A stretch of DNA of 64,000 nucleotides from Myxococcota bacterium (GTDB taxonomy: Bacteria > Myxococcota > JAJVIH01), in assembly GCA_022072125.1 (NCBI GenBank), contig JAJVIH010000029.1, positions 1-64,000 on the forward strand. The letters are read 5' to 3'. Of this stretch, positions 32,238 to 37,783 are shown in pieces. The notes below the pieces were generated by a model, which saw only the letters and a list, made by a program, of their open reading frames with translations, searched no databases and had not been told where the DNA came from. Each line of letters opens with the position of its first letter. The first letter of the stretch is position 1. Made by a program: the position numbers and the translations under genes.

Positions 32238-33746
32238 CTAGGGGCGGCACAAACCCGCCGTGCAATTCAGGCCCGGCGAGCAGTCCTGCACCCCTCCGCA
32301 TTTGCATTTCTTCGATCCGGAGATGACCGGACCGCCCCAGTCACAGGAGGATTTCGGGCGGCAGTTGACCCCCGCCCCCGATCCATTGCCGGAACAGGAC
32401 CCCGCCGTGCTGTAGCAGAAGCGGTGATCGGGATCGCAGCGCGAGTACTCCGATGGGCAATCGCTGTCATTCAGGCACTGGGTGGAAAAATCCTTCTTCC
32501 GGCAGAGGCCGTCCGGATGACACAGGAACGAGGCGTCTCCACATGCCTGGGAGGATTCGCACAGGCAGGCCGTTCCCGCGGCGTTGGGTTTCCAGAAGTT
32601 GTCGCAGACCACCCCGCATTTTCCTCCCTGACAGACGGGCGTTCCATGAGAGACCGCCGGACATGTCGTCCCGCATTTTCCACAGTTGTTGATGTCGCGG
32701 GAGAGGTCAAAACCTTCATCCACGCGGCCGTTGCAGTTGTTGTCGCGGCCGTCGCAGACTTCCGGCGCGCCTGTCACGCCGCAGGCCGATTCACATCCGT
32801 CCTGCGGCGACTTGTTGAGATCGGCGAAGCCTGGCTGGCAATCACCCATCTGGCATTTGCCATTCACGCAGAGGGCGGAGGCGTTGGCGAATTCGCATTT
32901 GAGGCACTGGGGGCCGCAGCTTCCCGCCAGGTTCTTGGCGATGCCTTCGTCCACCGCGCCATCGCAGTTGTTGTCCACGAGGTCGCAGATTTCCACGCCG
33001 TTGTTGGTGGGGATACAGGTTTTGGATTCGCAGCCGTCTTTCGGATCCTGATTGGCGTCCGAGAAACCCGGCTCACAGGCCAGCCCGCAATTGCCCGATC
33101 GGCAAACCGGAGAGGCGTTAGCCCCGCCGGGGCATTGGCGGCCGCATTTGCCGCAGTTTTGGGAGTCCGCGTTCAGGTTGAAGCCTTCGTCGGTCAGGCC
33201 GTTGCAGTTGTTGTCGGCGGTGTCGCAGACCTCGGCGACGCCGATCGTGCCGGCGCAGGCGTATTCGCAGCCGTTGGACGGGTTGAAATCAATGTCGAAG
33301 AAACCGGACTTGCATTCGATGATCACGCAACGGCCCTCGCTGCATTCGCTGAAGGAATTGGGCAGCGTGCATGGGCCGCCGCAGTTGGAGTCCGTATCGC
33401 CGGGGCCGGAGTTCTCCGGGCTGGCGGAGTCGGATGGGGCGGCGTCCGCGGCGTCGCCAGAGGATGCATCGCCCCGGACATCCTCTGAACCGCCATCCGG
33501 AGGCAGGGGCCCGTCCGGAAGGGATGCATCCGTGGCGGTGGATGGAACCGATGCATCCGCCGCGGTCGCGGGGCCATCCGGAGGCAGTTGGTCGTTGGAA
33601 ATGCAGCGGCGGGTGAAACAGCGGAACCCGGGAGCGCATTCGTTGTCAGTTTCGCAGGCGATGCTGCCGGATCCCAGTTCAGTGCTGGGGAAGCATGACG
33701 CCAGCGCCAGCGCGATACCGGGAATCAGAAGGATCGAAAAACGCAT
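32238..33746 (-). CDS. Lipoprotein with MopE-type metal-binding motifs
   Basis: A 502-aa protein with signal and good lipobox (ALALASC). The mature part starts with a Cys-rich pair (ACETDNECAPGFRCFTRRCI), followed by an Asp/Ala/Pro-rich linker. Then come three MopE-type units, (V/I)CDxxDNNC(N/D)GxxDEG, interleaved with Cys-rich CGKCG and GCES modules. The family is annotated as putative metal-binding, and the Asn/Asp clusters suggest Ca or another divalent ion. AAAGG lies 5 bp before the ATG. It heads the minus-strand operon with glnE, and a diguanylate cyclase gene is divergent upstream. The function is unknown; surface location is inferred. Confidence 0.82.
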   Translation of the reverse strand: MRFSILLIPGIALALASCFPSTELGSGSIACETDNECAPGFRCFTRRCISNDQLPPDGPATAADASVPSTATDASLPDGPLPPDGGSEDVRGDASSGDAADAAPSDSASPENSGPGDTDSNCGGPCTLPNSFSECSEGRCVIIECKSGFFDIDFNPSNGCEYACAGTIGVAEVCDTADNNCNGLTDEGFNLNADSQNCGKCGRQCPGGANASPVCRSGNCGLACEPGFSDANQDPKDGCESKTCIPTNNGVEICDLVDNNCDGAVDEGIAKNLAGSCGPQCLKCEFANASALCVNGKCQMGDCQPGFADLNKSPQDGCESACGVTGAPEVCDGRDNNCNGRVDEGFDLSRDINNCGKCGTTCPAVSHGTPVCQGGKCGVVCDNFWKPNAAGTACLCESSQACGDASFLCHPDGLCRKKDFSTQCLNDSDCPSEYSRCDPDHRFCYSTAGSCSGNGSGAGVNCRPKSSCDWGGPVISGSKKCKCGGVQDCSPGLNCTAGLCRP

Positions 33747-34798: not shown

Positions 34799-36739
34799 AT
34801 GAACATAACGGTTTTTCGACCCTTCCTCTTCGCCGCGCTGGTGACAATCCTGCTTCAGGCCTGCGGCGGTGATGATCCAGCCGCCGGCAAGGACGCCTCT
34901 TCTCCCCCCACGGACGCCGGCGGCGGCGACGGCGCCTCCCCGGGCGAAGATGGCTCGGGAACAACGGATGGAGCCGAACCCGATGGATCCACGGGAAGCC
35001 CGGCGGTCAAGACCGTTCCCCGCCGCTACACCTTCCGCGCCATCGGCGGGTTCTCCATGGGCGGCATTTCCTCGTCGTTCATCGGACTGCGGCATCCGGA
35101 AAAATTCGACATCATCGGCCCCATGGGTTGCGCGGTGGATTTGCTGGATTTCATCTACACCCTGCGCAGCGAATTCTTCGGCGGGTTCTGCGCGCCGCCG
35201 CAATTGGGCAAGATGTGCCGCCAGCCCGGCAAGCCGCAGGATTTCGAGCATATCATCACCGGTTCGGGGCTGGGAAAAATCTCCCGCCGCACCCTGCAGA
35301 AGGATTTCAATGGCGCGTTCATCTCTTTCGGAAATCCGTTTTCATACAATCCAGCGCATCCCTATTTGGCGGCCGGATTCACCCGCGAATTTCTGACCAA
35401 GCCTGACGACGAACGCTGCAAGAATCCCGTTCGCGTCGAGAACCTGTTCGACGTTCAATACAACCCAGAAGGCAAATTCAAGGCCATCAGCTTCTGCGAC
35501 GGCGCCGATGTCAAGGATGAAGGTCTGTTCGATCCTTCCCGCGCGCGCAATCCGGTGGATTACGCCCTGGCGATTGACCTCAACGACAACGGCGTGCGCG
35601 ACAGCGGCGAGCCGGTGTTGTTCCAGTGGGCCGAGCCCTTCAGGGACTCCGGCAAGGACGGCAAGGCGGACAAGGACGAACCAGGCTTTGATGCGGCGTC
35701 CAATCCGGATCCCTCGAAGGACAATTATGATCCGCTCAACAATCCCTATGGCAGCGAGGGGAACAACTGGTACGACGAAGGCGAACCTTACGATGACTTT
35801 GGCCTGGACGGCGTAAAGGACACGAAGGATCGCAACAAATGGGACTTCGGCGAAGGCAACGGCAAATTTGATTTCAATCCCAACTTCGCCCGCTTCTTCG
35901 ACTACGATCCCATCGCCCGCCTGCCCAAGGTGGATTTGTCCCGCCTGGATTTCTACATGGACGTGGGCATTCGCGACGAGTTCCGTTTCGCGCCCAACAT
36001 GGTCAAGGCGGTGTCGGTGCTCAAGGCCAACAACGTGGAGATCCAGACCTTTGAAGGTTTCGACGCCCTTTCCCCCGACGCCCGCGATCAGTCGCAAACC
36101 CGCATTGACTGGGCGTCGAAGTCCCGCAGCATCTTTGTGAAATACGGCAAAAAGGACGCCACGCCGAAAGAAATCGCCGACGGCGATGGCGGTCATGTGG
36201 GCACCGTGCCCCAGGTGGTGGATCGCCCGCTGACCTTTCTGTCGTTTGTCTCGGCCCATCTGCCGGGCGGAGATTACGACAAGGTCAATGAGATGTACGT
36301 GACCAAGGAGTTCAAGTTCTTTTCGCCGGCGGTCAACGGTGAAAAGAGCTTCTGGGCGATTTTGCCGCCCGGCTACAACCGTCCGGACAAGGTTTACCCT
36401 GTCGTCTATCTGCTGCACGGCATCGGCATGGACGCCCAGGACCTGCTTGCGGTGGGCGCTTTCCTGGGCGACTGGCAGAAACGCGGCCTGATCCAGAAGA
36501 TGATCATCATTCTGCCCAGCGGCGAATGCGCGCCCGGCGAATGCCCTTCATCGAATTTCTTCGCCAATCAGGTGGGATGGGCCAAGCCCGGCCGCAACAA
36601 CGAAGATTCCCTGGTCAACGACCTGATGAAGTATGTGGACGACAACTTCAAGGTGAAAAAAGAGGCCATTATCGAGGTTCCCGCCGAAGGTCCCAACAAG
36701 GGTTGGGTTCCCAGTTCGCGGCCTCGCGTGGGTCAGTGA
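34799..36739 (+). CDS. Esterase-like lipoprotein with apparently permuted alpha/beta-hydrolase core
   Basis: A 646-aa protein with signal and lipobox (ILLQAC) and an Asp/Gly/Ser-rich linker. The esterase D-type elements appear in unusual order. The nucleophile elbow GFSMGG (S86), which normally comes late, is at the N-terminus, followed by LRHPEKFDIIGPMG. A likely acid residue D393 (VGIRDEF) and likely His H466 (DGGH) follow. The part that normally comes first, LPPGY (from 522) and YPVVYLLHGIG, then LPSGEC and LVNDLMKYVDDNF, is at the C-terminus. Between S86 and D393 lies an insertion with Ca-loop motifs (DLNDNGVRDSGE). All triad candidates are present, so activity is plausible; the substrate is unknown. 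It precedes amrS by 3 bp. Confidence 0.8.
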   Translation: MNITVFRPFLFAALVTILLQACGGDDPAAGKDASSPPTDAGGGDGASPGEDGSGTTDGAEPDGSTGSPAVKTVPRRYTFRAIGGFSMGGISSSFIGLRHPEKFDIIGPMGCAVDLLDFIYTLRSEFFGGFCAPPQLGKMCRQPGKPQDFEHIITGSGLGKISRRTLQKDFNGAFISFGNPFSYNPAHPYLAAGFTREFLTKPDDERCKNPVRVENLFDVQYNPEGKFKAISFCDGADVKDEGLFDPSRARNPVDYALAIDLNDNGVRDSGEPVLFQWAEPFRDSGKDGKADKDEPGFDAASNPDPSKDNYDPLNNPYGSEGNNWYDEGEPYDDFGLDGVKDTKDRNKWDFGEGNGKFDFNPNFARFFDYDPIARLPKVDLSRLDFYMDVGIRDEFRFAPNMVKAVSVLKANNVEIQTFEGFDALSPDARDQSQTRIDWASKSRSIFVKYGKKDATPKEIADGDGGHVGTVPQVVDRPLTFLSFVSAHLPGGDYDKVNEMYVTKEFKFFSPAVNGEKSFWAILPPGYNRPDKVYPVVYLLHGIGMDAQDLLAVGAFLGDWQKRGLIQKMIIILPSGECAPGECPSSNFFANQVGWAKPGRNNEDSLVNDLMKYVDDNFKVKKEAIIEVPAEGPNKGWVPSSRPRVGQ

Positions 36740-36742
36740 TTC

Positions 36743-37783
36743 ATGTTTGCGGATTGCCTCCTGCACCGTCCGCTGAAAAAACAGCACGTCCAGTGCCGTG
36801 TGTGCGAGCACTGGTGCGCCATCGCCCCGGGCGAGGCGGGACGGTGCGGGGTGCGCCGCAATTACGATGGCCAACTCAAACTGGTGGTGTACGGCAAGGC
36901 GGCGGCGATCAACGTGGATCCGGTGGAGAAAAAGCCGCTGTTCCATTTCCTGCCAGGTGGAAATATCCTGTCGCTGGGCACGCTGGGATGCAACCTGCGC
37001 TGCCAGTTCTGCCAGAATGCAGGCATCTCGCAAGTGCGGGATTTTGATCCCCAGTCGGACTGGATTGGCCGCGACTGGTCTCCCGCCGCGCTTGTGGACG
37101 CATGCGGGGCGACGGGTTCGCGGATGATCGCCTTCACCTACAACGAGCCGGTCATCTTTCTGGAGTACGCCCTCGACACCATGAAGCTGGCCCGTCAGGC
37201 GAGGCTGAAAACCGTATTTGTCTCCAGCGGGTTTGAAACCATCGAGGCGATAGAGCTTCTGGCGCCATGGATGGACGCCATCAATATTGATCTCAAGGGA
37301 TTCACGGAAAAATTTTACCGGGATATTTGCGGCGCCCGTCTCGCGCCGGTGATGCGCAACATCGAACACATCCGCAAGCACACGGGCGTATGGGTCGAGG
37401 TCACCACGCTGCTGATCCCGGGTCTGAATGATTCCCCGGAAGAAGTGCGGGAGATGGCGCGTTTCCTGCGCGGCGTGGACCCGGACATGCCCTGGCATCT
37501 CTCCGCGTTTCATCCCGATCACAACATGTTGAATCGCCCCCGCACCCCGCGCGAGACGATCCTGCGCTCCCGCGACATCGGCCGTGAGGAAGGGCTCCGC
37601 TACGTGTACGCGGGCAATATCTCGCCGGAAATCAATGAAACACGGTGTCCGCGCTGTCAGACCGCGCTCCTGAGCCGCAGCGGATACATCACCCGCACGT
37701 TCTGGGAAACGCCCGGGCAATGCCATGGTTGCGGCGAATCCATCGCCGGGGTTTGGAACAACGGATGGGATTCCGGGAACTGA
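36743..37783 (+). CDS. amrS: AmmeMemoRadiSam system radical SAM enzyme
   Basis: A 346-aa protein resembling pyruvate formate-lyase-activating enzymes. The radical SAM [4Fe-4S] motif C-x3-C-x2-C is at C83, C87 and C90 (GCNLRCQFC). Additional Cys sets lie at the N-terminus (C18, C21, C25, C35) and in a C-terminal zinc-ribbon-like pair (CPRC and CHGC, with GVW near the end), the pattern of AmrS. The family partners AMMECR1 and Memo domains, whose reaction is not settled; neither partner gene lies in the window. The gene is packed between the esterase-like gene (3 bp gap) and holB (19-bp overlap). Confidence 0.9.
   Translation: MFADCLLHRPLKKQHVQCRVCEHWCAIAPGEAGRCGVRRNYDGQLKLVVYGKAAAINVDPVEKKPLFHFLPGGNILSLGTLGCNLRCQFCQNAGISQVRDFDPQSDWIGRDWSPAALVDACGATGSRMIAFTYNEPVIFLEYALDTMKLARQARLKTVFVSSGFETIEAIELLAPWMDAINIDLKGFTEKFYRDICGARLAPVMRNIEHIRKHTGVWVEVTTLLIPGLNDSPEEVREMARFLRGVDPDMPWHLSAFHPDHNMLNRPRTPRETILRSRDIGREEGLRYVYAGNISPEINETRCPRCQTALLSRSGYITRTFWETPGQCHGCGESIAGVWNNGWDSGN

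What the first reader, a model, noticed from the sequence alone, without database searches (positions are those of the whole stretch)
34799..36739. Esterase-like lipoprotein with a circularly permuted hydrolase core and calcium-loop insert
In esterase D-type proteins the order is LPPGY, oxyanion/HG segment, LxxDL-YxD, then the GFSMGG nucleophile, acid and His. Here GFSMGG (S86), the acid candidate D393 and His candidate H466 come first, and LPPGY, YLLHG, LPSGE and LMKYVDDNF come last. The C-terminal end (YVDDNF, just before the stop) is the segment that in relatives runs directly into the region matching residues around FRAIGGFSMGG. The junction is thus at the expected place of a permutation, not an internal loss. 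A segment with DLNDNGVRDSGE-type loops sits between S86 and D393.
Basis: partly seen in the sequence, partly recalled or inferred. Interest (0 to 1): 0.75.

Follow-up and report, generated by a model that had tools for sequence, protein, structure and literature searches.

The report
Circularly permuted esterase lipoprotein family
This gene encodes a cell-envelope esterase whose back half was moved to the front while the catalytic residues stayed intact, a rearrangement now found fixed in well over a hundred bacterial genomes, which makes it a clear natural case of a circularly permuted enzyme.

Summary
The 646-aa lipoprotein at 34799-36739 carries one complete PF00756/CE1-type esterase domain in rotated order: nucleophile strand, cap, acid, His, then LPPGY/oxyanion half. 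A profile of its family matches ferulic acid esterase 7xrt in adjacent pieces: our C-half to 24-143, our N-half to 145-179. Reordering the halves turns two split profile matches (123 + 70) into one (184). The same order occurs in 63 places in the window's phylum and about 95 in a second phylum-level group; no member has conventional order or two copies. Ser86, Asp393 and His466 are invariant in every aligned member that covers them. A roughly 250-residue cap with three EF-hand-like loops sits between nucleophile and acid. The members form one clade, so one ancient event is likely. The closest precedent is the type 2 PHA depolymerases, which have the same cyclic order, but no sequence link to them was found. 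So the single integrated fold and calcium binding are inferred. Verdict: a real, apparently undescribed, permuted variant of a common esterase family.

The parts
34799..34864 (+). Signal peptide with lipobox (LQA-C22)
   Evidence: Translation; Cys22 column C in 52 of 53 members
34865..35011 (+). Low-complexity Gly/Ser/Asp linker, variable in length among relatives
35021..35182 (+). Start of the permuted catalytic core: nucleophile strand and elbow RAIGGFSMGG and the following helix/strand (residues 75-128); Ser86 at 35054-35056
   Evidence: Matches 7xrt 145-179; Ser86 invariant 53/53
35183..35929 (+). Large insert (residues 129-377) between nucleophile segment and acid strand, in the place where alpha/beta-hydrolase caps sit; four invariant Cys (131, 140, 207, 233)
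   Evidence: Gap of only about 26 residues at this place in 7xrt; conserved in family
35576..35611 (+). EF-hand-like loop 1, DLNDNGVRDSGE (260-271)
   Evidence: Positions 1,3,5,6,9,12 match; D260 and E271 invariant
35645..35680 (+). EF-hand-like loop 2, DSGKDGKADKDE (283-294)
   Evidence: D283 invariant
35795..35830 (+). EF-hand-like loop 3, DFGLDGVKDTKD (333-344)
   Evidence: D333 and D337 invariant
35930..36259 (+). Acid and histidine segment (378-487): D393 at 35975-35977, H466 at 36194-36196
   Evidence: Aligned with the acid strand of 7xrt 205-244 and of the conventional esterase profile; D393 and H466 invariant 52/52
36260..36664 (+). Relocated N-terminal half of the esterase domain (488-622): LPPGY, YLLHG oxyanion segment, LPSGE, helix ending YVDDNF; invariant C577 and C582
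   Evidence: PF00756 1-115; 7xrt 24-143
36665..36739 (+). C-terminal tail and stop, variable and short in relatives
   Evidence: 2-18 residues in relatives after the YRT position, 27 here

Best explanation
The protein is a lipid-anchored serine esterase whose single alpha/beta-hydrolase domain of the PF00756 (CE1/feruloyl-esterase-like) type is a natural circular permutant. The ancestral C- and N-termini were joined, and new termini were opened in the loop between the helix that ends YVDDNF/YRT and the nucleophile strand RAIGGFSMGG. The lipid anchor and linker therefore lead directly into the nucleophile strand. Most likely one folded domain brings together Ser86, Asp393 and His466, with the HG segment at 540-541 supplying the oxyanion region as in conventional esterases. 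An inserted cap of about 250 residues, probably stabilised by disulfides and by calcium in three EF-hand-like loops, sits over the active site and would set substrate choice. Shown here: the order, its conservation, and the invariance of the catalytic residues. Inferred: the fold, the chemistry, calcium binding, and the substrate (perhaps feruloyl or acetyl esters of polysaccharides).
For: Adjacent, swapped matches to 7xrt: family-profile 477-604 to 24-143 (i-E 1.6e-20), 36-70 to 145-179 (i-E 6.8e-4) and, weakly, 337-373 to 205-244. Profile-profile: the native order gives two hits (123 on template 8-138, 70 on template 141-247); the reordered core gives one hit of 184 over template 8-247, E 6.6e-26. 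PF00756 score rises by 10 to 14 bits in four of four members when reordered. A rotation scan over 31 members peaks at 61 bits, against 35 in native order. All 31 members match PF00756. Same order in 63 places in 52 genomes of the window's phylum and about 95 more in a second phylum-level group. Of 73 sequence rows, 70 show both halves in swapped order and none in conventional order. S86 53/53, D393 and H466 52/52, six Cys invariant, lipobox Cys 52/53. Permuted members form one clade, SH-aLRT 92. Core length without the cap (about 300 aa) fits exactly one esterase domain.
Against: The His-bearing stretch 415-487 is not aligned to conventional esterases by profile and contains an insertion, so H466 rests on invariance and position alone. 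No activity data. No Pfam family recognises the calcium-like loops. Gene neighbours are not conserved and give no substrate hint.
Confidence: 0.85

Rival explanations
1. The two halves do not complete each other within one chain: the swapped halves exchange between two protomers (domain-swapped dimer), so the active site forms at an interface.
For: A permutant with long inserts could swap; sequence data cannot tell cis from trans completion.
Against: No direct evidence for it. The link between the two halves is short (about 20 residues around 478-500) in the window protein and its nearest relatives.
Confidence: 0.08
2. Two originally separate proteins or domains were fused in this order, and the C-terminal esterase half is a non-catalytic add-on to another hydrolase formed by residues 75-487 alone.
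For: PF00756 is recognised mostly in the C-half; the His segment is not matched by profile.
Against: The N-part lacks everything before the nucleophile strand, and the C-part lacks everything after the following helix; together they tile one domain with no overlap and with a 1-residue gap on 7xrt. Both halves hold invariant functional residues.
Confidence: 0.04
3. A tandem duplication with loss of the outer halves left an inactive remnant (pseudoenzyme).
For: Duplication followed by trimming is the textbook route to permutants (general knowledge); tandem paralogous genes occur in two genomes (loci L103, L108).
Against: Catalytic residues are invariant over more than 50 divergent members, so catalysis is under selection; no intermediate with a second copy was found.
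Confidence: 0.03

Closest known systems
PF00756 esterases of the CE1/feruloyl esterase type (XynZ 1jjf, ferulic acid esterase 7xrt, AmCE1 5cxu)
   Same: Both halves match by sequence, with nucleophile elbow GxSMGG, LPPGY, HG segment and acid strand
   Different: Order of the halves is rotated; about 250-residue cap with EF-hand-like loops; lipoprotein anchor
Extracellular type 2 PHA depolymerases (Penicillium funiculosum PhaZ, PDB 2D80; Comamonas, Acidovorax TP4)
   Same: Same cyclic order: lipase box near the N-terminus, oxyanion hole C-terminal to the triad (PMC2666664, PMC11893044)
   Different: No sequence match to 2D80 at E up to 10 and no type 2 depolymerase model listed among NCBIfam hits at E up to 1; different cap; hence probably an independent permutation. 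That the 2D80 paper calls its fold circularly permuted is my recollection
S-formylglutathione hydrolase / esterase D (TIGR02821)
   Same: Nucleophile segment FRAIGGFSMGG resembles it; 19 of 31 members match weakly
   Different: Far below the curated cut-off (12 against 281.7 bits in the window protein); order rotated
alpha/beta-hydrolases with permuted edge strands beta1/beta2 (SE_1780 3fle, 2z8x, 1lgy; PMC11878206)
   Same: Natural topology changes in the same superfamily
   Different: There only peripheral strands moved; here the whole first half, cut just before the nucleophile strand
Engineered circular permutants of Candida antarctica lipase B
   Same: Shows that alpha/beta-hydrolases tolerate permutation (general knowledge)
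   Different: Made in the laboratory; other branch of the fold

Membership tests
PF00756 putative esterase | Curated Pfam score above cut-off | tested here: met
   45.3 bits against 22; all 31 members match at E up to 0.1
PF00756 putative esterase | Profile matched in conventional order N to C | tested here: not met
   Profile 1-115 lies at 509-622, nucleophile segment at 78-113; 70 of 73 rows swapped, none conventional
PF00756 putative esterase | Ser-Asp-His triad with GxSxG | tested here: met
   S86 53/53, D393 and H466 52/52; roles inferred
CE1 feruloyl/acetylxylan esterase | Sequence similarity to characterised CE1 enzymes | tested here: met
   7xrt 6.8e-27, 1jjf 1.7e-18
CE1 feruloyl/acetylxylan esterase | Activity on feruloyl or acetyl xylan | not testable with these tools
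   No assay
Type 2 extracellular PHA depolymerase | Nucleophile near N-terminus, oxyanion segment C-terminal to the triad | tested here: met
   Order; definition from PMC2666664
Type 2 extracellular PHA depolymerase | Sequence homology to type 2 catalytic domains | tested here: not met
   No 2D80 match up to E 10; no type 2 model listed among NCBIfam hits
Type 2 extracellular PHA depolymerase | Linker plus substrate-binding domain at C-terminus | tested here: not met
   Protein ends 2-27 residues after the last core helix
S-formylglutathione hydrolase (esterase D) | NCBIfam TIGR02821 above cut-off | tested here: not met
   12 bits against 281.7
Natural circular permutant of the alpha/beta-hydrolase fold | Reordering restores one co-linear match | tested here: met
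Natural circular permutant of the alpha/beta-hydrolase fold | Single integrated fold in a structure | tested here: inconclusive
   AlphaFold2 with two sequences, pLDDT 31

The most novel reading that the evidence does not exclude
An independent, single, ancient circular permutation of a CE1-type esterase, cut immediately before the nucleophile strand and fixed across two phylum-level groups together with a calcium-loop cap, convergent with the type 2 PHA depolymerases. This would make the loop before the nucleophile strand a recurrent natural permutation site of alpha/beta-hydrolases.
Probability: 0.6. Interest if true: 0.62.

Novelty: new variant of a known kind. Interest (0 to 1): 0.55.

Why it matters
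Natural circular permutants of the large alpha/beta-hydrolase superfamily appear rare; a 2024 classification describes only moved edge strands. Here the order of the two halves of the catalytic core is swapped, the change is old and stably inherited, and the triad is untouched. It gives a well-populated natural set (about 150 loci) for asking how permutation affects folding, anchoring and cap evolution. It also warns that domain annotation reports these proteins as truncated esterases. If the type 2 PHA depolymerases are indeed unrelated, the same cut has been fixed at least twice.

Tried and rejected
(1) Structure prediction: allowed inputs were the window and loci from the search for related loci/search_dna; only one such relative (L032) was found, and the two-row AlphaFold2 job gave pLDDT 30.7, pTM 0.23, so no fold search was run. 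(2) Viral contigs hold no relative found at that sensitivity; plasmids give only conventional esterases and isolated calcium-loop matches. (3) Tandem-copy hypothesis: the extra N-terminal sequence of long members (up to about 390 aa) has no Pfam match in the one tested, and in the members listed the conventional-esterase profile finds no extra esterase half there. (4) Conventional proteins with the same cap: calcium-loop matches outside the family lie in a ceramidase-like protein, another lipoprotein and a Nitrospirota hypothetical protein, not in esterases. (5) Operon context: window neighbours (GGDEF, radical SAM, pol III delta') are not next to the relatives; only one GGDEF match in L032. 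(6) Literature: no paper found on a permuted CE1 or myxobacterial esterase.

Full report
WHAT IS THERE. The ORF at 34799-36739 (+) encodes 646 aa: a lipoprotein signal (LQAC22), a Gly/Ser/Asp-rich linker, and a long domain beginning RRYTFRAIGGFSMGG (S86) and ending in YVDDNFKV plus a short tail. Pfam finds PF00756 positions 1-115 at 509-622 (E 1.2e-11). phmmer against the PDB matches XynZ feruloyl esterase 1jjf in two pieces: query 489-619 to chain 16-140 and query 78-113 to chain 145-180, the reverse order.

THE FAMILY. Searches in 58 related genomes found 29 further full relatives, and a genome-collection scan found one more in a Kofleriaceae MAG. All begin with a signal, most with a clear lipobox, and a linker of varied length, then go directly into the nucleophile strand, and all end within a few residues after the 'YRT' position of the helix that in conventional esterases runs into the nucleophile strand. 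A phylum-wide search gave 63 essentially full-length, co-linear places in 52 of 195 genomes, in 18 coded families (counted by me from the table). A search in the phylum-level group of the Kofleriaceae genome gave about 95 more places of at least 450 profile positions among 379 genomes (also counted by hand). The two genome sets share no handle, so I read them as two phylum-level groups of the held taxonomy; NCBI puts Kofleriaceae in Myxococcota. The name of the window's own phylum is not given by the tools.

EVIDENCE FOR PERMUTATION. (a) The family profile hits 7xrt as 477-604 to 24-143, 36-70 to 145-179 and 337-373 to 205-244 (the last not significant on its own): adjoining pieces of one domain, swapped, with the insert falling between 179 and 205. 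(b) Reordering four members (with the cap left out) raised PF00756 from 45.3, 43.9, 48.2 and 27.3 to 58.0, 57.9, 58.3 and 37.7 bits and made one stretch of it. (c) With a profile made from 15 conventional esterases of the same phylum, a rotation scan of 31 members gave a mean of 35 bits in native order and 61 bits when the start was placed between about 418 and 498. (d) hhalign: native core two hits, 123.3 on template 8-138 and 69.7 on template 141-247; reordered core one hit of 183.7 on template 8-247, E 6.6e-26. (e) Over 73 family rows (three are repeat fetches) the conventional profile saw both halves in swapped order in 70, in conventional order in none, and only one half in 3. (f) A tree on reordered columns puts all 52 permuted rows on one side of a branch (SH-aLRT 92; quick method, conventional rows have long branches), compatible with one event.

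CATALYTIC AND CAP FEATURES. In 53 aligned members S86 is invariant; D393, H466 and G541 are invariant in the 52 that cover them, and H540 is His in 50 of 52; C131, C140, C207, C233, C577 and C582 are invariant. Spacing S86-D393 is 286-416 residues; D393-H466 is 73-90. Residues 129-377 form the insert. It carries DLNDNGVRDSGE, DSGKDGKADKDE and DFGLDGVKDTKD, which fit EF-hand loop spacing (1,3,5,6,9,12); the pattern used expects 0.016 per shuffled protein. Alpha/beta-hydrolase caps usually follow strand 6 (PMC11878206), which is where this insert lies by sequence. Calcium binding is an inference: no Pfam calcium family matches.

MECHANISM, WITH STATUS. Shown: domain order, conservation, lipobox, invariant triad candidates. 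Inferred from family knowledge: acyl-enzyme serine esterase chemistry with S86 as nucleophile, H466 as base and D393 as acid, and oxyanion stabilisation from the 540-541 region; disulfides in the envelope; a calcium-stiffened cap. Most likely substrate class by similarity: small acyl or feruloyl esters on polysaccharides, but this is a guess. How the permutation arose (duplication and trimming, or other) is not visible; no intermediate was found.

COMPARISON WITH WHAT IS KNOWN. Type 2 extracellular PHA depolymerases have been defined by the oxyanion hole lying C-terminal to the triad (PMC2666664; PMC11893044), which is the same cyclic order. They are the nearest precedent, and they keep this finding from being categorically new. 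The family here is not recognisably homologous to them: no 2D80 match up to E 10 and no type 2 model listed among NCBIfam hits, while type 1 and feruloyl esterase models match. A 2024 survey of the superfamily mentions permutation only of edge strands beta1/beta2 (PMC11878206). Searches of the open-access library found no report on a permuted CE1 esterase or a myxobacterial one; subscription papers are not covered.

LIMITS. No usable structural model was obtained. The His segment is assigned by invariance. Other phyla could not be surveyed.

Noticed in passing
L073 (G013:C244), L072 (G034:C54), L078 (CP114554.1): The calcium-loop module EPFxDxGxDGxxDxxEPGYDxxxNPDPxGDNYDPxxNPxGTEGN also occurs in a neutral ceramidase-like protein, another lipoprotein and a Nitrospirota plasmid protein, so it behaves as a mobile insert without a Pfam name.
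   Followed up: partly
window 32238-33746 (-): Cysteine-rich lipoprotein with MopE-type metal-binding motifs (PF11617) in repeats of about 70-90 residues.
   Followed up: no
L077 (G029:C109:13825-14580): A shortened paralogue of the permuted esterase with an internal deletion joining the cap to the last helix, probably a decayed copy.
   Followed up: no
L124, L126, L129, L136: Long members in the second phylum-level group have an extra N-terminal region of about 200-300 residues before the nucleophile strand (motif ALGPAVSF...PFxLPxxxALLP...GTYQAVV) with no Pfam match in the one tested; perhaps an Ig- or ZU5-like domain.
   Followed up: partly
L103 (G092:C62) and L108 (G093:C5): Two near-identical permuted esterase genes lie close together on the same contig.
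   Followed up: no
window 36743-37783 (+): A radical SAM gene starts 3 bases after the esterase stop, suggesting co-transcription here, but it is not beside the esterase in the relatives.
   Followed up: partly
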